NCBI RefSeq assembly: GCF_007279655.1
Contig: NZ_QKWN01000008.1
Coordinates: 186,001-250,000 of the forward strand
Length of the DNA: 64,000 nucleotides
Source of the DNA: Robertkochia solimangrovi
Lineage (GTDB): Bacteria > Bacteroidota > Bacteroidia > Flavobacteriales > Flavobacteriaceae
Reading direction: 5' to 3'
The notes beneath the pieces were generated by a model. The model had not been told where the DNA came from. It saw only the letters and a list, made by a program, of their open reading frames with translations, and searched no databases. Numbering within the stretch: position 1 is the first letter of the stretch; each line of letters starts with the position of its first letter. Of the stretch, positions 12,462 to 40,660 are shown piece after piece. Position numbers and translations under genes: made by a program.

Positions 12462-12597
12462 GTGCAAAAGTGTTATAACGATTATATATAGTTTTTGTCG
12501 ATGTTAAAAAGCTTCATACAGCATAATCTATAATTTTAAATACCCCTCTGTTCCTAAAATTGATATGGGACAGTAAACCAGCAGATAAACCAACACC

Positions 12598-13470
12598 ATG
12601 ATTGCAAACAATCCCATATTGAACAAAAATGCTGTTTCTCATCTGGAGGAAATTCTGAAATCCGTGGCTTCCGATAAGGAAGTTCTATGGTTACAAATAC
12701 AGATGGAAGACCTTGTAGAAAAACAGTCTACCCGTGATTTCTATCTGACCTATACGCTTATTCGACAACGATTTTCTGATACTCCTGCCTTGCTTTCTAC
12801 TTCTGATGACAAGCTGGATCAGTACCTGTATACGCACGATGCGAAAGCCTATGAAGTGGCCCGTATCCTGTTGTTGAATTTTGTTCTTGATGCGGACCCG
12901 GAATTTTTCAGAGACAAGGTGCAGCATCTGATCGAGGTGGCAGACCGAAAGGAGTTGGAAAGCTTTTTGAAGTTTCTGGTGCTTTTACCTAATCCTGAAG
13001 AATACAGGTTTACCGCGGTGGAGGCTTTGCGTACGAATATTTCAGATATATTCGATGCGATCAGTCTGGAAAATCCGTATCCTGCTTTGTATTTCAATGA
13101 GCAGCAATGGAATCAGATGTATCTCAAAGCGGCCTTTATGCAACGACCATTACAGAAGATTATGTATGTAGAGGATCGGGCTAATGCTGAACTTACCCGT
13201 ATTATCTCCGATTATGCTCATGAACGTTGGGCGGCGGGTAGAACTATCGATCCGATGATATGGAGACCCGTTGCGAAATTTTTGGATCCGACAATTCTGA
13301 ATGATATAAAAAGATTGATAAACAGTGATGATCCCGCAGAAAACAAGGCGGCATTACTGGTTTGTGCTGCAGCTGATACTCCTGAGGCAGCCGAATTACT
13401 TGTTTTACACAGCCCCGATCCGGAACGTTTACGATCGGAAAGTATTAACTGGAATAACCTAAACACTTAA
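12598..13470 (+). CDS. eboA: EboA-family protein
   Basis: A 290-residue, largely helical, probably cytosolic protein. The most recognisable block is WNQMYLKAAFMQRPLQKIM ... RANAELTRIISDYAHERWAAGRTIDPMIWR near residues 170-230, which is typical of EboA. Its biochemical role is not known. First gene of a six-gene ebo operon, in the same order as clusters tied to cryptic metabolites and scytonemin export in other bacteria. The next gene starts after two bases. A short AT-rich leader precedes it and no strong promoter is evident. Confidence 0.88.
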   Translation: MIANNPILNKNAVSHLEEILKSVASDKEVLWLQIQMEDLVEKQSTRDFYLTYTLIRQRFSDTPALLSTSDDKLDQYLYTHDAKAYEVARILLLNFVLDADPEFFRDKVQHLIEVADRKELESFLKFLVLLPNPEEYRFTAVEALRTNISDIFDAISLENPYPALYFNEQQWNQMYLKAAFMQRPLQKIMYVEDRANAELTRIISDYAHERWAAGRTIDPMIWRPVAKFLDPTILNDIKRLINSDDPAENKAALLVCAAADTPEAAELLVLHSPDPERLRSESINWNNLNT

Positions 13471-13472
13471 TT

Positions 13473-14381
13473 ATGGAAGAAAAATTAATGTTCATTGATC
13501 CGCATGTTCATATGACGTCCCGCACCACGGATGATTATGAAGCGATGGCTGCAGCAGGTGTTGTTGCGATAATCGAGCCTTCTTTTTGGCTTGGACAACC
13601 GAGAACCCAGGTAGGGTCTTTTCAGGATTACTACAGCAGCCTGGTTGGCTGGGAGCCTTTTCGTGCCAGTCAGTTCGGAATCAAACATTATTGTACCATA
13701 GGTCTGAATTCAAAAGAGGCGAATAATGAAGCTCTTGCTGAACAAGTGATGGATTTATTGCCCCTTTATCTTTTTAAGGAAAATGTTGTAGCGATAGGAG
13801 AGATCGGATATGATGATCAAACCCCTACAGAGGATAAATATTTCCGTATGCAACTGGAGATGGCCCGGGAGTACAATATGGTCGTTCAGGTACATACGCC
13901 ACACCGTGATAAAAAAGCCGGAACGATTAAAAGTATGGAGGTGTGTCTGGAGCACGGATTGGATCCGTCTATGGTGATAATCGATCATAACAATGAAGAA
14001 ACTGTTAAGGAAGTGCTTGATCGCGGCTTTATCGCAGCATTTACCATTTATCCCAAAACAAAAATGGGAAATGAACGGATGGTAGAAGTGGTTAGGCGTT
14101 TCGGAAGCGATAATATAATTGTTGACAGCTCTGCAGATTGGGGGGTTAGCGATCCTCTCGCAGTGCCAAAAACAGCTGGATTGATGTTGAGAAGCGGTAT
14201 TGCCCGCGAAGATGTTATAAAAACATGCTATCAGAATGCACTCGATGCTTTTGGTAAGAATGGAAGAATGAAAGAAAGTGATTGGCTGGGTGCCGGAGGT
14301 ATCGATCAGCGTGAACTTTTTAATGATAACAGCGTGTTACGAGGTCAGCAGCCTCGTATCGACCAGGAAAAAATAGTTTGA
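13473..14381 (+). CDS. eboB: EboB, TatD-like metal-dependent hydrolase
   Basis: A 302-residue TIM-barrel amidohydrolase-like protein. The start FIDPHVHMTSRT gives the HxH metal pair; GEIGYDDQTP holds the central acidic ligand; VQVHTPHRDK and MVIIDHNNEETV give later histidines; VDSSADWGVSDPL supplies the final Asp. These are the TatD-type positions, but sequence around them is EboB-specific and the substrate is unknown. Start ATG 13473 is two bases after eboA. Its stop overlaps the eboC start (TGATG). Confidence 0.9.
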   Translation: MEEKLMFIDPHVHMTSRTTDDYEAMAAAGVVAIIEPSFWLGQPRTQVGSFQDYYSSLVGWEPFRASQFGIKHYCTIGLNSKEANNEALAEQVMDLLPLYLFKENVVAIGEIGYDDQTPTEDKYFRMQLEMAREYNMVVQVHTPHRDKKAGTIKSMEVCLEHGLDPSMVIIDHNNEETVKEVLDRGFIAAFTIYPKTKMGNERMVEVVRRFGSDNIIVDSSADWGVSDPLAVPKTAGLMLRSGIAREDVIKTCYQNALDAFGKNGRMKESDWLGAGGIDQRELFNDNSVLRGQQPRIDQEKIV

Positions 14382-15286
14382 TGAAAAAGGAAACCGTTTT
14401 AGGGTACATTCGGTTGATGAGGCCGGCAAATCTTCCCACGGCAATGGCTGATATTTTGGCCGGAGCTACTGTGGCAGGGGCTGCCGATTTATTTCTTTCA
14501 TCAGACACAGAACCGGTTCTGATCTTGAAACCTTTACTTTTTTTAGTTCTGGCCTCGATCTGCCTGTATGCCGGTGGCGTTGTGCTCAACGATGTATTCG
14601 ATTTCGAGCTTGACCTTAAAGAGCGCCCCGAAAGGCCCATACCTTCCGGAAAGGTTTCTTTGAAGGGTGCTATGCTTTTTGGAAACCTGTTGCTTTTTTT
14701 AGGAGTGGTACTGAGCTTTCTGGTGAATAACAAATGCGGTATTATTTCTATTTTGTTGGTTTGCAGTATCCTGTCTTATGATGCATGGGCAAAACATCAT
14801 AAACTATTCGGACCTCTGAATATGGGGTTATGCCGCGGACTGAATCTGTTGCTGGGAATGGCCATTCTGGGGCATTTCGAACAATGGTGGATCATGGTGA
14901 TCCCGGTCTTTTATATCGCGGCAATTACCATGATCAGCAGAGGTGAGGTTCATGGAAATAATCGGTCTAATATTGCGCTGGCTAGTATTATTTACGGACT
15001 TGTGATCCTGATGATCCTGCAACTGGCAATTTTCGGAAAACATCACATCCTACAGGTTATACCTTTTATTGTGGTGTTCGCTGTCATGATATACAAGCCT
15101 CTTTTGAAGGCTTTTAAAGATAATTCGCCCTTGAATATCAAGGGAGCTGTAAAAGCAGGTGTCATCGCCTTGATCGTGATGGATGCATGTATCGCTGCAG
15201 GCTTTTCTCAATGGTGGTTTAGTCTGGGTATGCTTTTGCTGCTTCCCTTATCCTTTGTACTGTCTAAACAATTTGCAGTAACCTGA
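14381..15286 (+). CDS. eboC: EboC, UbiA-superfamily prenyltransferase-like membrane protein
   Basis: A 301-residue polytopic inner-membrane protein. The first aspartate-rich motif is NDVFDFELDLKERPERPIPSG (near residues 70-90), the UbiA prenyl-diphosphate/Mg site, preceded by RLMRPANLPTAMADILAG. A second polar loop has DAWAKHHKLFGPLNMGLCRGLN. Several hydrophobic segments follow. UbiA enzymes move prenyl groups to aromatic or other acceptors; the acceptor here is unknown. ATG 14381 overlaps the eboB stop by one base and is chosen over the in-frame TTG three bases upstream. Confidence 0.92.
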   Translation: MKKETVLGYIRLMRPANLPTAMADILAGATVAGAADLFLSSDTEPVLILKPLLFLVLASICLYAGGVVLNDVFDFELDLKERPERPIPSGKVSLKGAMLFGNLLLFLGVVLSFLVNNKCGIISILLVCSILSYDAWAKHHKLFGPLNMGLCRGLNLLLGMAILGHFEQWWIMVIPVFYIAAITMISRGEVHGNNRSNIALASIIYGLVILMILQLAIFGKHHILQVIPFIVVFAVMIYKPLLKAFKDNSPLNIKGAVKAGVIALIVMDACIAAGFSQWWFSLGMLLLLPLSFVLSKQFAVT

Positions 15287-15296
15287 AACTATTGTT

Positions 15297-16454
15297 ATGA
15301 AAAATTTCGGAACCATTACTAAGTCATTTAAGGTAAGCTATGAATATTCATTGCTTTTCACCGATAGTCTTTTTGATTTCAGCAATGACCTTTTAAAGGA
15401 TCTTTTGCTTCGGTCTGAAGGAGAATTCCCTAAAAAGGTGATGTTTGTGATCGATGAGAATGTTTATCAAAGTCATGAATACTTATCAGATGAGATCAAC
15501 GCTTATTGTAAAAAGTTCAGCGATGTGATCCGGCTTACCCAAAAACTGGTAATTCCGGGTGGAGAACAATGTAAGAACGATAGTAAGCATTTGAATAAAG
15601 TCCTGGAAGCGATCGAAAAGAATAGTATCTGCAGACATTCCTTTGTGATCGCTATCGGTGGAGGAGCTATTTTGGATATGGTTGGTTTTGCAGCGGCAAC
15701 GGCGCACAGGGGTGTTCGCTTTATCAGGATCCCTACTACCGTATTATCACAGAATGATTCGGGAGTTGGGGTTAAGAACAGTTTTAATTATCTGGGAAAA
15801 AAGAATTTTCTGGGAACCTTTGCACCCCCTTTTGCAGTGATCAATGATTGGAATTTCCTTTCAACACTTGAAGATCGTGACTGGAGGGGCGGAATCTCAG
15901 AGGCGGTTAAAGTAGCATTGATCAGAGATGCCGAATTTTACTCTTTTCTAAGGAAGGAAGCCCATGCCCTGAAGAACCGGGAATGGGAACCGATGAAAAG
16001 ACTTATTTACCGCTGTGCTGAATTGCATATGGAACATATTGCAGAACAGGGGGATCCGTTTGAGTCTGGTTCTTCCAGACCATTGGATTTCGGACACTGG
16101 GCTGCACATAAAATAGAACAAATCACTGAATTTGAATGCCGGCATGGTGAAGCTGTTGCCATAGGGATCGCTCTGGATGTAACCTACAGTCATCTTTGCG
16201 GTATGTTGGAGGAAGACGTAATGAAGGACATAAAACAGACCTTACTGAATGCAGGTTTTGATATCTCAATACCCGAAGGGGTAAGAGAGTCCGATCTGTT
16301 AAACGGACTAGACGAATTCAGAGAACATCTCGGTGGAAAGTTGACCATTCCTTTACTTACCGGGATCGGAGAGCGCAAAGACGTTCACCATATCGACCCC
16401 GAACTTATGACTGTAGCTATGAAAATGTTAAAAGAGTTACCACAGTTAAAGTAG
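15297..16454 (+). CDS. eboD: EboD, 3-dehydroquinate-synthase-like sugar phosphate cyclase
   Basis: A 385-residue member of the dehydroquinate synthase / sugar phosphate cyclase superfamily. NAD-binding: AIGGGAILDMVGFAAATAHRG; phosphate region: IPTTVLSQNDSGVGVKN. Zinc ligands are present: Glu in GGISEAVKVALI, His in PLDFGHWAAHKIE, His in RHGEAVAIGIALD. All catalytic positions therefore look intact. Its linkage marks it as EboD rather than AroB of the shikimate pathway. The real substrate is unproven; 2-epi-5-epi-valiolone-type cyclisation is a guess. Eleven bases after eboC. Confidence 0.92.
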   Translation: MKNFGTITKSFKVSYEYSLLFTDSLFDFSNDLLKDLLLRSEGEFPKKVMFVIDENVYQSHEYLSDEINAYCKKFSDVIRLTQKLVIPGGEQCKNDSKHLNKVLEAIEKNSICRHSFVIAIGGGAILDMVGFAAATAHRGVRFIRIPTTVLSQNDSGVGVKNSFNYLGKKNFLGTFAPPFAVINDWNFLSTLEDRDWRGGISEAVKVALIRDAEFYSFLRKEAHALKNREWEPMKRLIYRCAELHMEHIAEQGDPFESGSSRPLDFGHWAAHKIEQITEFECRHGEAVAIGIALDVTYSHLCGMLEEDVMKDIKQTLLNAGFDISIPEGVRESDLLNGLDEFREHLGGKLTIPLLTGIGERKDVHHIDPELMTVAMKMLKELPQLK

Positions 16455-16459
16455 AAAGA

Positions 16460-17686
16460 ATGTTAATTAACGATAAGTATCATTTGTCGTATTGTACCAA
16501 TATTCACCCGGGTGAGAATTGGGCTCAGACGTTTGCGAATCTAAGGATCTACCTTCCGGAGGTCAAAAAGAAAATGTCTCCGGAAACCCCGTTTGGAATA
16601 GGGTTACGTCTGTCGAACAAGGCAAGTGAAGAACTCCATACCGGAACCAATCTGTACCGGTTTAAACAATGGCTGGAAGCCAATGATATGTATGTCTTTA
16701 CCATGAACGGATTTCCGTATGGTAATTTTCATTTCAGCGAAGTCAAAGATCTTGTACATGCTCCTGACTGGACTAAGGAAGATCGGCTTGAGTATACACT
16801 GCGTTTGTTCGATCAGCTCAATTATCTTTTACCTAAAGGAGTATCTGGTGGAATCTCGACTTCTCCCGTAAGTTATAAGCACTGGCATACAACAGAGGAG
16901 TTGCGGGAAAAGAGCTTTGAAAAAGCTGCATTTAATATGGCCAGAGTCGTTCACCGTCTTTATGACCTCGAATGTGTGACTGGTAAATATATGCATCTCG
17001 ATATTGAACCGGAGCCAGACGGACTCATAGAGAATAGCTTCGAGTTGATCAATTATTATCGGGCATACCTGATTCCTGCTGCTGCGGAATATCTTAGAAA
17101 GGAACTCGATAAGAATCCGGTAGAAGCGGAGGAAATGGTCTTGCGTTATATTCAGGTTTGCTACGATACTTGTCATTTTGCGCTGGCGTATGAAAATCCG
17201 GACCGAACCTTTAAGCGATTTGCACAAACCGGAATACGCATTGGTAAAATTCAGATCAGTTCGGCCCTTAAAGTACAGTTTAGCGGGGATAATGACAGAC
17301 AATTAATGGAGGAATTGTCTAAATTCATCGAGCCGGTGTACCTTCACCAGGTAACCGAAAAAACTGATAATGGGGTGCGAACCTATTCTGATCTGCCGGC
17401 GGTGGTGAATTCAAAAAGAAAATTTAAAGAGCTCAGGGCACATTTTCATGTTCCGATATTTCTCGAAAAGTATGGAAATCTCATGTCAACTCAGGAACAG
17501 ATATTGCAAACGATAAAATATTTAGCGGCTCACCCTGGATTATGTGAGCATATCGAGGTGGAAACCTATACCTGGGAAGTTCTTCCCCAGGATCTGAAAC
17601 TGGAACTTACCGAATCGATCCATCGGGAATTAACCTGGCTAAAAACTAATTTACTCAATGTATATGAAGAAGACTGTAGTTCTTAA
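16460..17686 (+). CDS. eboE: EboE, TIM-barrel sugar isomerase/epimerase-like protein
   Basis: A 408-residue protein of the xylose-isomerase-like TIM-barrel group named EboE (metabolite traffic). Key segments: LSYCTNIHPGENWAQTFANL, FTMNGFPYGNFH, LHLDIEPEPDGLIEN (likely metal-binding acids), VCYDTCHFALAYENP, KIQISSALK and HIEVETYTWEVLP. The spread of D/H/E positions fits a metal-dependent isomerase, but no reaction is established. Starts five bases after eboD and overlaps eboF by 29 bases, which points to translational coupling. Confidence 0.9.
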   Translation: MLINDKYHLSYCTNIHPGENWAQTFANLRIYLPEVKKKMSPETPFGIGLRLSNKASEELHTGTNLYRFKQWLEANDMYVFTMNGFPYGNFHFSEVKDLVHAPDWTKEDRLEYTLRLFDQLNYLLPKGVSGGISTSPVSYKHWHTTEELREKSFEKAAFNMARVVHRLYDLECVTGKYMHLDIEPEPDGLIENSFELINYYRAYLIPAAAEYLRKELDKNPVEAEEMVLRYIQVCYDTCHFALAYENPDRTFKRFAQTGIRIGKIQISSALKVQFSGDNDRQLMEELSKFIEPVYLHQVTEKTDNGVRTYSDLPAVVNSKRKFKELRAHFHVPIFLEKYGNLMSTQEQILQTIKYLAAHPGLCEHIEVETYTWEVLPQDLKLELTESIHRELTWLKTNLLNVYEEDCSS

Positions 17687-19061
17687 TGTCGTAGGTCTTA
17701 CCCCCAGACTGATAGGCAGGGACACACCTTTTATTCAGAAATTTGTTCAACGCGGAAAATCAACGATTATTGAGCCGGTATTACCGGCGGTAACCTGCTC
17801 GGTTCAATCTACCTACCTGACTGGTAAGTGGCCCGAAACCCATGGTGTAGTGGGAAATGGTTGGTATTTTAAGGATGAACTTGAGGTTAAGTTCTGGCGT
17901 CAGTCAAACCGATTGGTGGAAAGTCCGAAAATCTGGGATGAATTAAAAAAGCAGGATCCTGAATTTACCTGTGCTAATATGTTTTGGTGGTATAATATGT
18001 ATTCCACGGCCGATTATAGTGTAACTCCCAGACCTAATTATCTGGCTGACGGCAGGAAATTACCGGATATTTATTCCTTCCCTGCAGGTCTTCGGGACGA
18101 GTTACAGGAGGAATTAGGGACTTTTCCCTTATTTGATTTCTGGGGGCCGCGTACCTCGATCAAATCCAGTAAATGGATCGCCGATGCCAGTATCCTTACC
18201 GATAAGAAATATGATCCAACACTCACTCTTGTCTATTTACCGCATCTTGATTATAATCTGCAACGCTATGGTCATGATATGGAAAAGATAGCCTCAGACC
18301 TTCAGGAGATCGATGCCGTGGTGGAAGAGTTGGTAACTTATTATGAGCGTAAGAATGCAAATGTTATCTTATTGTCGGAATACGGGATCACAGATGTTTC
18401 AAATCCGGTACATGTCAATCGTATCCTCAGAGAGAACGGTTGGCTGGCTATTCGGGAGGAAAGAGGGTTGGAATTGCTGGATGCAGGTGCTTCCAAAGCT
18501 TTTGCAGTTGCCGATCATCAGGTTTGTCATGTGTACCTTAATGATCCAAAGATCAAGAATGCTGTGATTTCAGCGCTTCGAAAAACGACCGGAATTAAGG
18601 AGATCATGGGAAAACATGATCAGCAATTGAATCATATTTCTCATGAAAGAAGTGGAGACCTTGTGTTAGTTTCTGATGAAAATTCATGGTTCACGTATTA
18701 TTTCTGGCTGGATGATTCCAAAGCACCGGATTTTGCACGCATCGTCGACATTCATAAAAAACCGGGATATGATCCCGTAGAGATGTTCACAGACCCCGGG
18801 AAGCCTTTTATAATGGCAAGGGTTCTGTGGAAATTGTTTAAAAAGAAACTGGGTTTCCGGGTACTTATGGATGTTATTCCATTGGATGCCAAACTTGTTA
18901 AAGGGTCACACGGAAGAATCCCGGAAAGTAAATTAGATTACCCGGTATTGGTTTCCAATGTAAAGGATGGTGCTGCGGGAGAATCCGTTAGCGGTGTTGA
19001 AGTTTATGATATTATAAAACAACATATAACCAATTCTAAAATCCATGAAACCATTCTTTAA
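17658..19061 (+). CDS. eboF: EboF, type I phosphodiesterase / nucleotide pyrophosphatase-like protein
   Basis: A 467-residue alkaline-phosphatase-superfamily protein. VVGLTPRLIGRDTP gives the first metal region and PAVTCSVQSTYLTGKWPETHGVVGNGWY holds the probable Thr nucleophile of nucleotide pyrophosphatases. Further metal ligands are likely in LPHLDYNLQRYGHD, LLSEYGITDV and GSHGRIPESKLDYPVLV. There is no signal peptide, so it should act in the cytosol. It starts inside eboE (ATG 17658 or 17664), and its own end overlaps the next gene by 17 bases. Natural substrate unknown. Confidence 0.9.
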   Translation: MYMKKTVVLNVVGLTPRLIGRDTPFIQKFVQRGKSTIIEPVLPAVTCSVQSTYLTGKWPETHGVVGNGWYFKDELEVKFWRQSNRLVESPKIWDELKKQDPEFTCANMFWWYNMYSTADYSVTPRPNYLADGRKLPDIYSFPAGLRDELQEELGTFPLFDFWGPRTSIKSSKWIADASILTDKKYDPTLTLVYLPHLDYNLQRYGHDMEKIASDLQEIDAVVEELVTYYERKNANVILLSEYGITDVSNPVHVNRILRENGWLAIREERGLELLDAGASKAFAVADHQVCHVYLNDPKIKNAVISALRKTTGIKEIMGKHDQQLNHISHERSGDLVLVSDENSWFTYYFWLDDSKAPDFARIVDIHKKPGYDPVEMFTDPGKPFIMARVLWKLFKKKLGFRVLMDVIPLDAKLVKGSHGRIPESKLDYPVLVSNVKDGAAGESVSGVEVYDIIKQHITNSKIHETIL

Positions 19062-19422
19062 AATTCTTGCTTCGATCTTTGCTTTACTTTTTATCGTTTC
19101 TGCGGCGTTACAATACAACGATCCGGATCCTTATTTCTGGTATGCAATTTATCTGTTTGCTGCAGTATTATGCGTCTTGTTCATCTTTGGAAAGCTTCCA
19201 TTCTGGCTTGCAACACTGGCGGCGGTAGGTTTTATAATCGGAGGAATCTTCGCCTGGCCTGAAACTTTCGAAGGGGTGCAGATAGGCGATGGTGACATCA
19301 GGAATATCGAAGAAGGAAGGGAGTCGCTCGGACTTTTTATTATCGCATTTGTGATGTTGTTACTGGCCTTGCGGATCAGAAACGCAAAGCGCATTAAACA
19401 TCAAGATCAAATTCTTTCCTGA
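19045..19422 (+). CDS. TMEM220-family small membrane protein
   Basis: A 125-residue protein with about four hydrophobic segments: IFALLFIVSAALQYN, WYAIYLFAAVLCVLFIF, LATLAAVGFIIGGIFAWP and LFIIAFVMLLLALRI. The element YNDPDPYFW after the first segment is the TMEM220 signature as I recall it. Function unknown. The ATG at 19045 lies inside the end of eboF (17-base overlap), so this gene is probably a seventh member of the ebo transcript. Its 3' end overlaps convergent dnaX by 29 bases. Confidence 0.83.
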   Translation: MKPFFKILASIFALLFIVSAALQYNDPDPYFWYAIYLFAAVLCVLFIFGKLPFWLATLAAVGFIIGGIFAWPETFEGVQIGDGDIRNIEEGRESLGLFIIAFVMLLLALRIRNAKRIKHQDQILS

Positions 19423-21172
19423 GCAGTTCCAGATACGGATTTCGAGTGCATAATTTCTCGTATTTTTCCTGAGGTGTAAAGGCATATTCCTTTTCAGTAG
19501 CTTCATTCACCTGTATGAACAATTCGATGTGGAAATTGTTGAGCTTTTCCTTCATGTAGGTCATGAGCGGATTCTTGTCTCTTTCCACCTCTTTTTTCAT
19601 AGTGTCATTGGGTAATTCGATATAGATCGTATGCTTGTCTTTAAGAGTAGGCGTACCTGTTGTAAGATTCGAGCTCATGATTTTCTTACCATCCTTATCG
19701 ATCATGTTGACATAATCCGTCCAGATTTTTTGCATTTCAGCTTCAGTGAATTCATCGGAAGGGAGATTTTCTTCAGTATACACTCTTTTTTGCTGATCCT
19801 TTTTTTCCTTATGTTTTCTTTGTTCCGCTAATGATTTTAAGGAAGTTCCGGAAACGGGAGCGTTTTTCATCTCCAGGATCGGTTTTCTAGGTGTTCCGGA
19901 CGGAGTAGGAGTAGATTGAATTGATGGCTTATCAGTGTAAGGCGCTGTCGTTTCAGCCTTGACCGTAGTTTTAGTTTCTGCAACTGCAACTTCTGCAACA
20001 GGAGCGGGTTGTCGTACTTCTTTCTTCGGTGCTAAGGTGCTGTCAATTCTTTCGGTCGTGCTTTCCCGAAAATAATTCGGTGGAATTATGAAGTATGGGT
20101 CATTTTTTTTTTCTCCATCGTAATTGATGGAGGCTAACTGCATAAGGCATAATTCAACCAGCAAACGCTGATTTTTGCTGCTCTTATATTTTAGGTCGCA
20201 CTCATTGGCGATTTCCAGTGCCTTCAGGAGAAAGGGTAAGGAAGTATGGTTGCTTTGCTCCAGATATTTTGCTTTGGTATCATCGCCTACCTCCAGTAAT
20301 TGAATGGTATTCGGATTGGTACAAACCATCAGATCCCGGAAATGTGATGCGAGATCACTGATAAAATGGTGGCCGTCAAAACCTATGGAGAGCACATTGT
20401 TGAAATAGAGCAGTAAGGACGGGATATCATTCTTAAGAATGAGATCAGTCACTTCCAGATAGGTCTGGTAATCGAGAACGTTCAGGTTTTCGGTAACGGC
20501 CTGTCTGGTCAGTTCCTTTCCGGAAAAACTCACCACTCTGTCAAATATAGACAGTGCATCACGCATGGCGCCATCTGCTTTTTGAGCGATGATGTGCAAT
20601 GCGTCATCTTCTGCATTGATGCCTTGACTTTCTGCGATGTATTTCAAATATTCCTTGGCATCTCCGACGGTGATTCGTTTAAAGTCAAAGATCTGACAAC
20701 GCGATAGGATCGTAGGGATGATCTTGTGTTTCTCTGTAGTAGCGAGGATGAAGATCGCATGTTTCGGCGGTTCTTCCAGCGTCTTCAGGAAGGCATTAAA
20801 TGCCGATGAAGATAACATATGGACCTCATCGATGATATAGACTTTGTATTTGCCTACCTGAGGCGGGATCCGCACCTGATCGATCAGGTTTCGGATATCT
20901 TCTACTGAATTGTTGGAAGCAGCATCGAGTTCAAAGATGTTGAACGCAAAATCTTCATCTTCTCTTTCATTGCCTTCTTCGTTGATCTTCTTTGCCAGAA
21001 TACGTGCACAAGTGGTTTTGCCTACCCCGCGAGGACCACAGAAAAGCAGTGCCTGAGCGAGATGATTGTTCTCGATCGCGTTCAGTAATGTATTGGTGAT
21101 CGCTTGTTGTCCCACCACATCTCTGAAGGTTTTTGGCCTGTATTTTCTAGCTGATACTACGAAATGTTCCAT
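19394..21172 (-). CDS. dnaX: DNA polymerase III subunit gamma/tau
   Basis: About 592 residues; the clamp-loader AAA+ ATPase. VSARKYRPKTFRDVVGQQ opens the protein, Walker A is GPRGVGKTTCARIL, Walker B IIDEVHMLS, and ILATTEKHKIIPTILSRCQ holds sensor 1 and the SRC motif. The four-Cys zinc module that normally follows Walker A is absent; KINEEGNEREDEDFAFNIFELDAASNN stands in its place. The C-terminal third is lysine-rich and low-complexity (tau-like linker), then a small folded end. ATG 21172 (MEHFVV) is preferred over TTG 21181. Confidence 0.95.
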   Translation of the reverse strand: MEHFVVSARKYRPKTFRDVVGQQAITNTLLNAIENNHLAQALLFCGPRGVGKTTCARILAKKINEEGNEREDEDFAFNIFELDAASNNSVEDIRNLIDQVRIPPQVGKYKVYIIDEVHMLSSSAFNAFLKTLEEPPKHAIFILATTEKHKIIPTILSRCQIFDFKRITVGDAKEYLKYIAESQGINAEDDALHIIAQKADGAMRDALSIFDRVVSFSGKELTRQAVTENLNVLDYQTYLEVTDLILKNDIPSLLLYFNNVLSIGFDGHHFISDLASHFRDLMVCTNPNTIQLLEVGDDTKAKYLEQSNHTSLPFLLKALEIANECDLKYKSSKNQRLLVELCLMQLASINYDGEKKNDPYFIIPPNYFRESTTERIDSTLAPKKEVRQPAPVAEVAVAETKTTVKAETTAPYTDKPSIQSTPTPSGTPRKPILEMKNAPVSGTSLKSLAEQRKHKEKKDQQKRVYTEENLPSDEFTEAEMQKIWTDYVNMIDKDGKKIMSSNLTTGTPTLKDKHTIYIELPNDTMKKEVERDKNPLMTYMKEKLNNFHIELFIQVNEATEKEYAFTPQEKYEKLCTRNPYLELLRKEFDLDV

Positions 21173-21326
21173 ACAGGACAAAGATAAAAATTGCGCACTA
21201 ATATGTCCTTTTTAAAAAAGCGAATTGTACATTTTTATTAACAACGTTGTTACGGGGTTACGCTGTTACTCTGTTTTGTTATCGCAGTGTAACCCTCCGT
21301 AAGAATTTTGGCATTTTTACCGTTCC

Positions 21327-39148: not shown

Positions 39149-40660
39149 ATGAGTGAATATTATTACATCTCGTCAGATGTACTGGATCTGCAAACCGTAC
39201 ATTCGATTTTAAAGGATGATCTAAAGTTGAAATTATCGGATGAAGCGCGGGTAAATATCGAGAACTGCAGAAGTTATCTCGATCGTAAGATCGCAGCCGA
39301 TGCCTCACCGGTTTATGGGATCAATACGGGGTTTGGATCACTTTGCAATATTAAGATATCGGGTGATAATCTGAGCCAACTACAGGAAAATCTCGTTATG
39401 TCGCATGCCTGTGGTACAGGTGAGACGGTGCCTAATGAGGTGGTTAAACTAATGTTGTTGCTAAAGATACAGTCTTTGAGTTACGGACATTCAGGAGTGC
39501 AGCTGGCAACGGTGAACCGGCTTATAGATTTCTATAATCATGAGGTCTTCCCGATCGTTTATACGCAGGGATCTTTAGGGGCTTCAGGAGATTTGGCGCC
39601 ACTGGCTCATCTGGCACTTCCGCTTATCGGTAAGGGCATGGTATCTTTCGAAGGGGAGGTTTGTGCTGCTGCTGCAGTTAATGAACGTTTTCAATGGGAT
39701 CCTATTACGTTACAATCGAAAGAAGGGCTAGCCTTGCTCAATGGAACTCAGTTCATGAGTGCCTATGGAATATGGTGTATTCTTCAATCCTATAAATTAT
39801 CCTGGCTTGCTGATATGATCGGGGCGCTTTCGCTGGAGGCCTTCGACGGTAGACTCGAGCCTTTCAATAAGCTGATACATTTGATCAGACCGCATCGGGG
39901 ACAGGTAAAGACTGCCGAGCGTATTCTTAAGTTTACCGAAGGCAGTGAATTGGCAGTTCAGGAGAAAAAACATGTTCAGGATCCTTATTCATTCCGCTGT
40001 ATACCACAGGTTCATGGAGCATCCAAGGATGCCTTGTGTTATGTAAGGAAAGTATTCAAGACAGAAATAAATTCGGTTACGGATAATCCGAATATCTTTG
40101 AAAATGAAGATATGATCATTTCAGGAGGTAATTTCCATGGGCAGCCTTTGGCGCTGGCCTTGGATTTTCTGGGAATATCCCTATCTGAGCTGGGTAGTAT
40201 CTCGGAAAGGCGCACCTACCAGTTAATCGCCGGACTTCGCGGATTGCCTGCATTTCTTGTAAATGATCCCGGGCTTAATTCCGGTCTTATGATCCCTCAA
40301 TATACCGCTGCCAGTATCGCGAGTCAGAACAAGCAGTTGGCTACACCGGCGAGCATCGATAGTATTGTTTCTTCCAACGGACAAGAGGATCATGTAAGTA
40401 TGGGGGCGAATGGAGCTACTAAAACGTACCGGATCGTTGAGAATTTAAGATCTATTCTCGCGATCGAGTTGCTGAATGCAGCGCAGGCTCTGAATTTCAG
40501 AAGACCTTTGAAGACATCGCCTGTGTTGGAGGATTTCTATGCGGCTTTTGTGGAAAAAGTTCCCTTTGTGGAAAAAGACCGGGTATTACACGATGATATA
40601 GAAGCTACCAAAGCATTCATGCATTCCATCGAATTCACTCCGGAAATGTTCCAGGATTGA
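39149..40660 (+). CDS. hutH: Histidine ammonia-lyase
   Basis: A 503-residue MIO-type lyase converting histidine to urocanate. The Ala145-Ser146-Gly147 triad in GSLGASGDLAPLAH cyclises to the MIO cofactor. YGINTGFGSLCN, the FHGQPLALALD block and SNGQEDHVSMGANGA agree with HAL rather than PAL, including the position of the substrate-binding residues. No hutU, hutI or hutG gene lies in the window. Confidence 0.95.
   Translation: MSEYYYISSDVLDLQTVHSILKDDLKLKLSDEARVNIENCRSYLDRKIAADASPVYGINTGFGSLCNIKISGDNLSQLQENLVMSHACGTGETVPNEVVKLMLLLKIQSLSYGHSGVQLATVNRLIDFYNHEVFPIVYTQGSLGASGDLAPLAHLALPLIGKGMVSFEGEVCAAAAVNERFQWDPITLQSKEGLALLNGTQFMSAYGIWCILQSYKLSWLADMIGALSLEAFDGRLEPFNKLIHLIRPHRGQVKTAERILKFTEGSELAVQEKKHVQDPYSFRCIPQVHGASKDALCYVRKVFKTEINSVTDNPNIFENEDMIISGGNFHGQPLALALDFLGISLSELGSISERRTYQLIAGLRGLPAFLVNDPGLNSGLMIPQYTAASIASQNKQLATPASIDSIVSSNGQEDHVSMGANGATKTYRIVENLRSILAIELLNAAQALNFRRPLKTSPVLEDFYAAFVEKVPFVEKDRVLHDDIEATKAFMHSIEFTPEMFQD

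What the first reader, a model, noticed from the sequence alone, without database searches (positions are those of the whole stretch)
12598..19061. Complete, tightly coupled eboABCDEF operon with no linked biosynthetic pathway
Six consecutive genes carry the Ebo signatures in the canonical order. They are joined by gaps of 2-11 bases or by overlaps (1 base B/C, 29 bases E/F). Catalytic motifs are intact in EboB (metal ligands), EboC (NDxxD), EboD (three zinc ligands) and EboF (Thr nucleophile). From the literature as I know it, ebo clusters are linked to cryptic metabolites and to scytonemin-precursor export, and their own chemistry is unsolved. Here no polyketide, NRPS or scytonemin gene is adjacent, so the cluster may make its own prenylated cyclitol-type compound. 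That last step is inference.
Basis: partly seen in the sequence, partly recalled or inferred. Interest (0 to 1): 0.75.

Follow-up and report, generated by a model that had tools for sequence, protein, structure and literature searches.

The report
Seven-gene ebo operon, probable prenyl-cyclitol maker
A bacterium carries a known but unexplained set of six genes (ebo) together with a seventh membrane-protein gene that often travels with them in its family, and comparison with other bacteria supports the older guess that the set makes a ring-shaped sugar alcohol joined to a lipid tail.

Summary
In detail: six intact, tightly coupled genes at 12598-19061 are eboABCDEF. EboD is not AroB; the genome has a true AroB elsewhere. 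But ABCDEF is the ancestral arrangement in Bacteroidetes and the prenylated-cyclitol idea was published in 2016 (PMC5133447), so neither is new.

Two results go further. (1) A seventh gene, a TMEM220-family (PF15071) membrane protein at 19045-19422, overlaps eboF. In a 149-genome family sample, 22 of 22 genomes with EboC carry TMEM220, against 9 of 127 without. In the 22 it abuts eboF in 16, precedes eboA in 3, lies 3 kb off in 1, is unlinked in 2. (2) In ebo clusters on plasmid records, EboD can be replaced by an inositol-phosphate-synthase homologue: of 24 loci examined (of 48 records), 21 have a prenyltransferase; 9 of these have EboD, 12 the replacement, none both, none neither; the 3 without prenyltransferase have neither cyclase. 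Two unrelated ring-forming enzymes in one slot favour a cyclitol product.

Product, transport role and TMEM220 function remain inferred.

The parts
12468..12597 (.). 130-base intergenic region between divergent miaE and eboA; presumed promoter region
   Evidence: no exact Bacteroidota-type promoter (pattern TTTG-N-TANNTTTG recalled, from no call) on the + strand; sigma-70 and terminator scan at chance level
12598..13470 (+). eboA: all-helical protein, HEAT/ARM-like by weak matches only; conserved DYAHERWAAGR-type block
   Evidence: PF13646 20.4 bits, under its cut-off; NF035938 152.5 bits; pLDDT 93.1; no significant PDB fold match
13473..14381 (+). eboB: TatD-like metal-dependent hydrolase family
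14378..15286 (+). eboC: UbiA-superfamily membrane prenyltransferase
   Evidence: NF035940 390.7 bits
15297..16454 (+). eboD: sugar-phosphate-cyclase superfamily, not AroB
16460..17686 (+). eboE: xylose-isomerase-like TIM barrel (PF01261 19.9 bits, under its cut-off)
   Evidence: (NF035939 482.1 bits)
17658..19061 (+). eboF: type I phosphodiesterase / nucleotide pyrophosphatase family
19045..19422 (+). TMEM220-family protein (PF15071), four helices; seventh gene of the unit, overlaps eboF by 17 bases
   Evidence: (84.6 bits, cut-off 27)

Best explanation
This is a genuine ebo operon of a bacterium whose nearest named relatives by EboE are Robertkochia (64-65%, Flavobacteriaceae), with a seventh gene. 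Likely mechanism: EboD cyclises a sugar phosphate (sedoheptulose 7-phosphate is the literature's proposal, not shown) to a cyclitol; [quoted passage not shown] EboC joins it to a prenyl chain in the membrane; EboF removes or transfers a phosphate-containing group; EboA holds partners together or helps catalysis. The prenyl-cyclitol then acts at the membrane, perhaps as a carrier or cofactor for moving small molecules to the periplasm. In this family the four-helix TMEM220 protein is a membrane partner whose conserved polar site probably faces the periplasm. Shown here: gene identities, coupling, TMEM220 association, EboD/inositol-synthase interchange. Inferred: every reaction, the product, the transport role, TMEM220's topology and function.
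For: Gene identities and coupling. EboD not AroB: TIGR01357 237 bits against a cut-off of 305, while another gene of the genome scores 340.8; NF004852, named 3-dehydroquinate synthase, is matched at 531-585 bits by three plasmid EboDs and passes its cut-off in 0 of 14 control genomes; an Asp (264) invariant in 27 EboDs stands where the 5 DHQS alignments printed have Asn. Cyclitol core: of 24 plasmid ebo loci, 21 with a prenyltransferase split 9 EboD / 12 inositol-3-phosphate-synthase homologue, 0 both, 0 neither; 3 without prenyltransferase have no cyclase. The EboE tree puts Gemmatirosa (replacement type) beside an EboD-type proteobacterium (support 0.83), apart from the actinomycetes, so probably two switches. 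Of the held flavobacterial and cytophagal loci with EboC and EboE only L068 lacks eboD, and its MAG holds an inositol synthase gene, a gene found in 1 of 149 family genomes. TMEM220: 22 of 22 against 9 of 127; phylum sample 27 of 35 against 26 of 357; Fisher p 2e-19 and 3e-20, not corrected for relatedness.
Against: In vitro, EboC homologues farnesylate quinolines; only aromatic acceptors were tested, so cyclitols remain open (PMC9235831). Klicki et al. saw no gene-specific or lipid-linked intermediate in ebo mutants (PMC6282210). The inositol-synthase homologues are divergent (43.6 bits of 638 on TIGR03450 for the one tested), so their product is not certain. By score, DHQS enzymes remain EboD's nearest solved structures. 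TMEM220 is absent from 8 of 35 phylum ebo genomes, was found in none of 24 plasmid ebo loci and nowhere in the plasmid collection with the window protein, and persists without EboC or EboE in 9 family genomes, 3 of them at the same miaE-dnaX site.
Confidence: 0.58

Rival explanations
1. Ebo proteins make no product of their own; they are a trafficking complex that moves pathway intermediates across the inner membrane, as argued for scytonemin monomer.
For: Every ebo deletion made in Nostoc (eboD was not among them) trapped the same monomer in the cytoplasm (PMC6282210); NCBI names EboA and EboE metabolite traffic proteins.
Against: Five of six proteins belong to enzyme families, and the four that I aligned keep their charged residues; a cyclase accompanies every prenyltransferase-bearing plasmid cluster of the 24 loci seen. 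The two views join if the product is the carrier.
Confidence: 0.15
2. EboC prenylates an aromatic acceptor (quinoline-like), so the product is a meroterpenoid.
For: EboC homologues of Maribacter, Zobellia and Algoriphagus farnesylate 8-hydroxyquinoline-2-carboxylic acid; NMR for the Maribacter product (PMC9235831).
Against: Only aromatic acceptors were tested, 6 of 14 reacted, and mutating the conserved Arg145 did not matter, as may happen with a non-native substrate. EboD is not AroB.
Confidence: 0.12
3. TMEM220 is only a positional neighbour: ebo happened to land between miaE and TMEM220 in an ancestral flavobacterium.
For: TMEM220 stays at the miaE-dnaX site without ebo in L140, L141, L144, and in L147, whose genome has ebo on another contig. 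miaE next door is a plain neighbour: 130 of 149 family genomes have it.
Against: TMEM220 is rare (31 of 149) yet present in all 22 EboC genomes of the sample, 2 of them unlinked; in seven loci TMEM220s of other lineages sit on the other side, directly before eboA (one of these, L084, is a short frame); co-occurrence holds across the phylum, where in 17 of 27 genomes the two lie on different contigs or over 20 kb apart.
Confidence: 0.25
4. EboD is a second 3-dehydroquinate synthase and the operon feeds aromatic metabolism.
For: Best PDB hits are DHQS (206.7 bits for the profile); the NCBI label says so.
Against: Below the curated aroB cut-off, true AroB elsewhere; the published tree places EboD outside DHQS (PMC5133447); 4p53 (listed as Cyclase; recalled as the sedoheptulose 7-phosphate cyclase ValA) aligns over profile positions 13-382, though with a lower score, 179 bits.
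Confidence: 0.05

Closest known systems
ebo operon ABCDEF of Bacteroidetes, Cyanobacteria, Leptospira and eustigmatophyte plastids (Yurchenko et al. 2016, PMC5133447)
   Same: Same six genes in the same order
   Different: Here and in relatives a TMEM220 gene follows; that paper's main text has no TMEM term. Its figure 3 and supplement, which may show flanking genes, were not seen
ebo cluster of Nostoc punctiforme, scytonemin monomer export (Klicki et al. 2018, PMC6282210)
   Same: Homologous EboA, B, C, E, F
   Different: No scytonemin genes found here; no TMEM term in that paper
UbiA-297 operon of Maribacter, Zobellia, Algoriphagus (PMC9235831)
   Same: EboC homologues, the first two from flavobacteria; in vitro farnesyltransferase
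   Different: Native acceptor untested; TMEM220 0 times in the full text by the listing
SCO3242-type cluster of actinomycetes (inositol-phosphate synthase, SCO3242 prenyltransferase, TIM barrel, EboA, EboB, EboE, EboF)
   Same: Homologous prenyltransferase, EboA, B, E, F module
   Different: EboD replaced by an inositol-phosphate-synthase homologue plus an extra TIM-barrel gene
EDB cluster of Pseudomonas fluorescens, nematode deterrence (Burlinson et al., seen only as described in PMC6282210)
   Same: Said to contain a full ebo cluster
   Different: Contains other genes too; not examined here

Membership tests
ebo operon | EboA, EboC, EboE by curated models | tested here: met
   EboA by the domain model only, not the narrower family model
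ebo operon | EboB, EboD, EboF of the right superfamilies in order ABCDEF, one strand | tested here: met
ebo operon | Single transcript | not testable with these tools
   Only overlaps and short gaps seen
ebo operon | Role in metabolite transfer to the periplasm | not testable with these tools
   Reported in Nostoc (PMC6282210)
3-dehydroquinate synthase (AroB) | Curated aroB cut-off of 305 bits | tested here: not met
   237 bits
Sugar phosphate cyclase superfamily (EboD) | Fold family and three zinc ligands | tested here: met
   the role of the three residues as zinc ligands is recalled
Sugar phosphate cyclase superfamily (EboD) | Substrate sedoheptulose 7-phosphate | not testable with these tools
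   Proposal of PMC5133447
TMEM220 family PF15071 | Pfam gathering score 27 bits | tested here: met
   84.6 bits
Scytonemin-linked ebo cluster | Adjacent scy genes | tested here: not met
   Pfam scan of 47 window proteins

The most novel reading that the evidence does not exclude
The flavobacterial ebo system has a seventh working part: TMEM220, a four-helix membrane protein with an invariant Asn-Asp...Trp site and a Glu-x-x-Arg-Glu site, predicted on the periplasmic side, which receives, flips or anchors the prenyl-cyclitol made by EboA-F. The cyclitol core itself can come from two unrelated enzymes, EboD or an inositol-phosphate synthase, so the output is a family of prenylated cyclitol lipids used for moving small molecules. 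Human TMEM220, tied to Golgi structure and secretion, could be a distant functional relative.
Probability: 0.3. Interest if true: 0.78.

Novelty: new variant of a known kind. Interest (0 to 1): 0.52.

Why it matters
The chemistry of ebo clusters has been open since they were named in 2016, although they occur across many phyla and in algal plastids. The EboD/inositol-synthase interchange turns 'perhaps a cyclitol' into a testable statement: feed inositol phosphate or valiolone-type cyclitols, not only aromatics, to the matching prenyltransferase. The TMEM220 link gives a bacterial context for a family shared with animals whose function is not settled, and offers a candidate for the membrane step.

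Tried and rejected
A known four-helix fold (small transporter type) for TMEM220: Foldseek gave no significant match (best E 0.32, an IgE receptor chain); sequence searches of the PDB gave nothing better than E 0.86. Solved homologue of EboA or EboE: none at E 1 or better; EboA fold search not significant (best 0.049, a designed protein). miaE as a functional partner: rejected, it is in 130 of 149 family genomes. Common neighbours of unlinked TMEM220 genes: 58 of 136 neighbour proteins of 34 loci were pooled; the most frequent Pfam matches were TonB-receptor and related domains in 6-8 of 58, nothing telling (25 of 88 families shown); clustering found no other family in more than 7 of 38 loci. 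Promoter and terminator scan at chance level. The idea that EboG is TMEM220: not supported, no TMEM220 match in 24 plasmid loci, EboG types included.

Limits: plasmid clusters examined were 24 of 48 records, chosen by me for variety, not at random. In some searches, L179, L191 and L192 gave no EboC match; I counted them as prenyltransferase-bearing on their annotation. L051 and L074 are the same contig, so the 31 loci with TMEM220 after eboF are 30. Some loci end soon after eboF, so absence of TMEM220 there says nothing. The L068 case is a single MAG and could be a mixed assembly; its two contigs differ in GC, 0.413 and 0.442. Fisher tests ignore relatedness. The TMEM220 tree was read without support values. 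L084's TMEM220 is a short frame and L047's is cut by a contig end.
Full report
WHAT IS THERE. Pfam and NCBIfam identify them as EboA (domain model met, narrower family model not met), EboB (TatD-like), EboC (390.7 bits, cut-off 250), EboD (cyclase superfamily), EboE (482.1 bits, cut-off 250) and EboF (phosphodiesterase family). Junctions are gaps of 2, 10 and 5 bases and overlaps of 4 (or 1, by start codon) and 29 (or 23) bases. Of the 47 window proteins scanned, none matches a PKS, NRPS or scytonemin family.

A SEVENTH GENE. A 125-codon frame at 19045-19422 starts 17 bases before the end of eboF and ends in a convergent overlap with the dnaX-like gene on the other strand (19394-21181). It is TMEM220, PF15071, 84.6 bits against a cut-off of 27, and the only copy found in the 4.4-Mb genome.

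IS THE LINK REAL? I took 21 relatives' ebo regions from unnamed family genomes and 80 named loci found with EboE, the best 80 of 364. In these 101 loci plus the window, 37 TMEM220 frames were found, recounted: 31 directly after eboF (window included; two are one contig, so 30), one 3.1 kb after it, five directly before eboA. Searches added two more directly before eboA (L170, L171) and one a few kb before it (L172). The remaining loci, mostly Cytophagales, show none, though some end soon after eboF. Genome-wide: in 149 family genomes, each labelled as its own genus, EboC passes its cut-off in 22 and TMEM220 in 31, and the 22 are all among the 31. In the 22, TMEM220 abuts eboF in 16, abuts eboA in 3, is 3 kb away in 1 and on another contig in 2. 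In 392 phylum genomes EboC is in 35 and TMEM220 in 53; 27 of 35 against 26 of 357. As a control, the divergent neighbour miaE, beside ebo in 30 of the 101 loci, is in 130 of 149 genomes, so its closeness says little. Against the link: 8 of 35 phylum ebo genomes lack TMEM220; 9 family genomes have TMEM220 with neither EboC over its cut-off nor EboE, and in three of these it sits at the miaE-dnaX site where ebo would be. Two of the three nest inside the ebo-linked TMEM220 group of the tree, which fits loss of ebo with TMEM220 kept. No TMEM220 was found in 24 plasmid ebo loci, or in any of 72,556 plasmid records with the window protein. So in this family TMEM220 goes with ebo but does not depend on it wholly, and the link may be confined to Bacteroidota.

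WHAT TMEM220 LOOKS LIKE. Across 77 sequences Asn, Asp and Trp of a QxNDPDxxxW block are invariant, and an ExxRExxG block is kept in 74-75 of 77. AlphaFold gives four helices, 3-25, 29-47, 53-70 and 85-124, mean pLDDT 91. The first block lies in the loop after helix 1, the second at the start of helix 4, so both are on one side. The basic C-terminus suggests that this side is periplasmic; that is my inference by the positive-inside rule, from no tool. No PDB fold matches significantly. Human TMEM220 is a Golgi protein whose knock-down disturbs Golgi structure and secretion (PMC6979480, passages); any functional link is speculation.

EBOD IS NOT AROB. EboD scores 237 bits on the aroB model, cut-off 305, while another gene of the genome scores 340.8. 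The NCBI model that it does pass, NF004852, carries the name 3-dehydroquinate synthase, but plasmid EboDs from Deinococcus, Ketogulonicigenium and Aureibacter pass it too and 0 of 14 control genomes do. Against: by bit score solved DHQS enzymes are its nearest structures.

AN INDEPENDENT TEST OF THE CYCLITOL IDEA. I looked at ebo clusters on plasmid records (48 records; 24 examined, chosen for variety). In 12 of them EboD is missing and a gene annotated or matched as inositol-3-phosphate synthase (PF01658 and PF07994 over their cut-offs in the three tested) is in the cluster, in all 12 with a second TIM-barrel gene; 11 are actinomycetes and one is Gemmatirosa. Nine have EboD. None has both. 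All 21 have a prenyltransferase, 18 by match and 3 by annotation. The three loci without a prenyltransferase in the stretch (L185, L187, L197) have neither cyclase. The EboE tree separates Gemmatirosa from the actinomycetes, so the switch probably happened twice, on moderate support (0.83). Among the 101 held Bacteroidota loci, one with EboC and EboE lacks eboD (L068, a Leeuwenhoekiella MAG; PMC5133447 reports another Leeuwenhoekiella with ABCEF). Its assembly holds an inositol synthase gene and, in the same gene row, a TIM-barrel gene 40-46% identical to those of the replacement clusters. Such a synthase was found in only 1 of 149 family genomes. That is one MAG and not proof; the row has other genes (YcaO, methyltransferase) and may serve another purpose. 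EboD's superfamily and inositol-phosphate synthases both close a sugar phosphate into a ring (established knowledge) and are unrelated folds (recalled). Their exchange beside a prenyltransferase argues that the operon needs a cyclitol. The caveat is that the replacement is divergent from the curated mycothiol-type synthase (43.6 of 638 bits), so its activity is inferred.

HOW IT PROBABLY WORKS. Cyclitol from EboD, adjusted by EboE and EboB, prenylated by EboC, with EboF acting on a phosphate group and EboA as partner; TMEM220 handles the product at the outer face in this family. Klicki et al. proposed that a prenylated carrier serves transport of scytonemin monomer (PMC6282210, discussion part 1 and section 8 read; they did not analyse eboD and saw no lipid-linked monomer); I keep this as the likely use. 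The published in vitro farnesylation of quinolines by EboC homologues tested 14 aromatic acceptors, and loss of the conserved Arg145 made no difference (PMC9235831, abstract, section 4 part 1 and section 7 read), so it does not settle the native acceptor.

WHAT IS KNOWN. PMC5133447 (abstract, sections 12 and 14 part 1, sections 16, 18, 21, and passages) named ebo, found ABCDEF ancestral in Bacteroidetes, and proposed the isoprenoid-cyclitol product. I found no print mention of TMEM220 with ebo (no TMEM term in two ebo papers; none in the third by listing; TMEM220 with the word bacterial, 2 papers, listing only, neither on ebo by title) nor of inositol synthase in ebo clusters (EboA with inositol, 0 papers; no inositol term in PMC5133447 or PMC6282210; two broader listings showed none among the 15 rows listed of 47 and of 22). 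The library holds open-licence papers only; supplements were not seen.

VERDICT. A real but ordinary member of the ebo family as first described, made more interesting by a recurrent seventh gene and by a comparative result that favours a cyclitol product.

Noticed in passing
L071 (Zhouia amylolytica) and L079 (Galbibacter pacificus): A full-length EboE over its cut-off stands in the same 21-kb locus as miaE with no other ebo gene matched there, and neither genome has an EboD over cut-off.
   Followed up: partly
L177 2856-4124 and L180 6921-7979: A gene annotated ferritin-like (PF12902 in L180), preceded by a large hypothetical gene, stands directly before ebo genes in both Aureibacter (Bacteroidota) and Mycetohabitans (Pseudomonadota). 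From memory, PF12902 occurs in indole-dimer enzymes, which would recall scytonemin-like chemistry.
   Followed up: no
L188 3174-4373, L189 3188-4390, L200 3005-4204: Three Streptomyces plasmids have a gene annotated ScyD/ScyE family directly before the inositol-synthase type ebo cluster, and a multicopper oxidase gene a few genes after it.
   Followed up: no
L187 and L197 (Streptomyces NBC_01340, NBC_01562): Only eboB, eboE and eboF were matched; cyclase, prenyltransferase, TIM barrel and eboA were not found in the 19-kb stretch, though EboE is nearly identical to that of the complete L198.
   Followed up: no
L195 1001-8633: In the Leeuwenhoekiella MAG: inositol synthase, unknown, methyltransferase, Gfo/Idh oxidoreductase, unknown (metallo-hydrolase-like by eye), YcaO and TIM-barrel genes in one row; perhaps a cyclitol-related cluster of its own.
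   Followed up: partly
L179 4753-6799: Two Gfo/Idh/MocA oxidoreductase genes head the ebo operon of Ketogulonicigenium, as would suit oxidation of a cyclitol.
   Followed up: no
window 39149-40660: Aromatic amino acid lyase (PF00221, 620 bits), 20 kb from ebo; histidine or phenylalanine type not resolved.
   Followed up: no
L189 15436-15759: A plasmid database row labels a 2Fe-2S protein gene as tet(W/32/O) at 100% identity; probably a mislabel.
   Followed up: no
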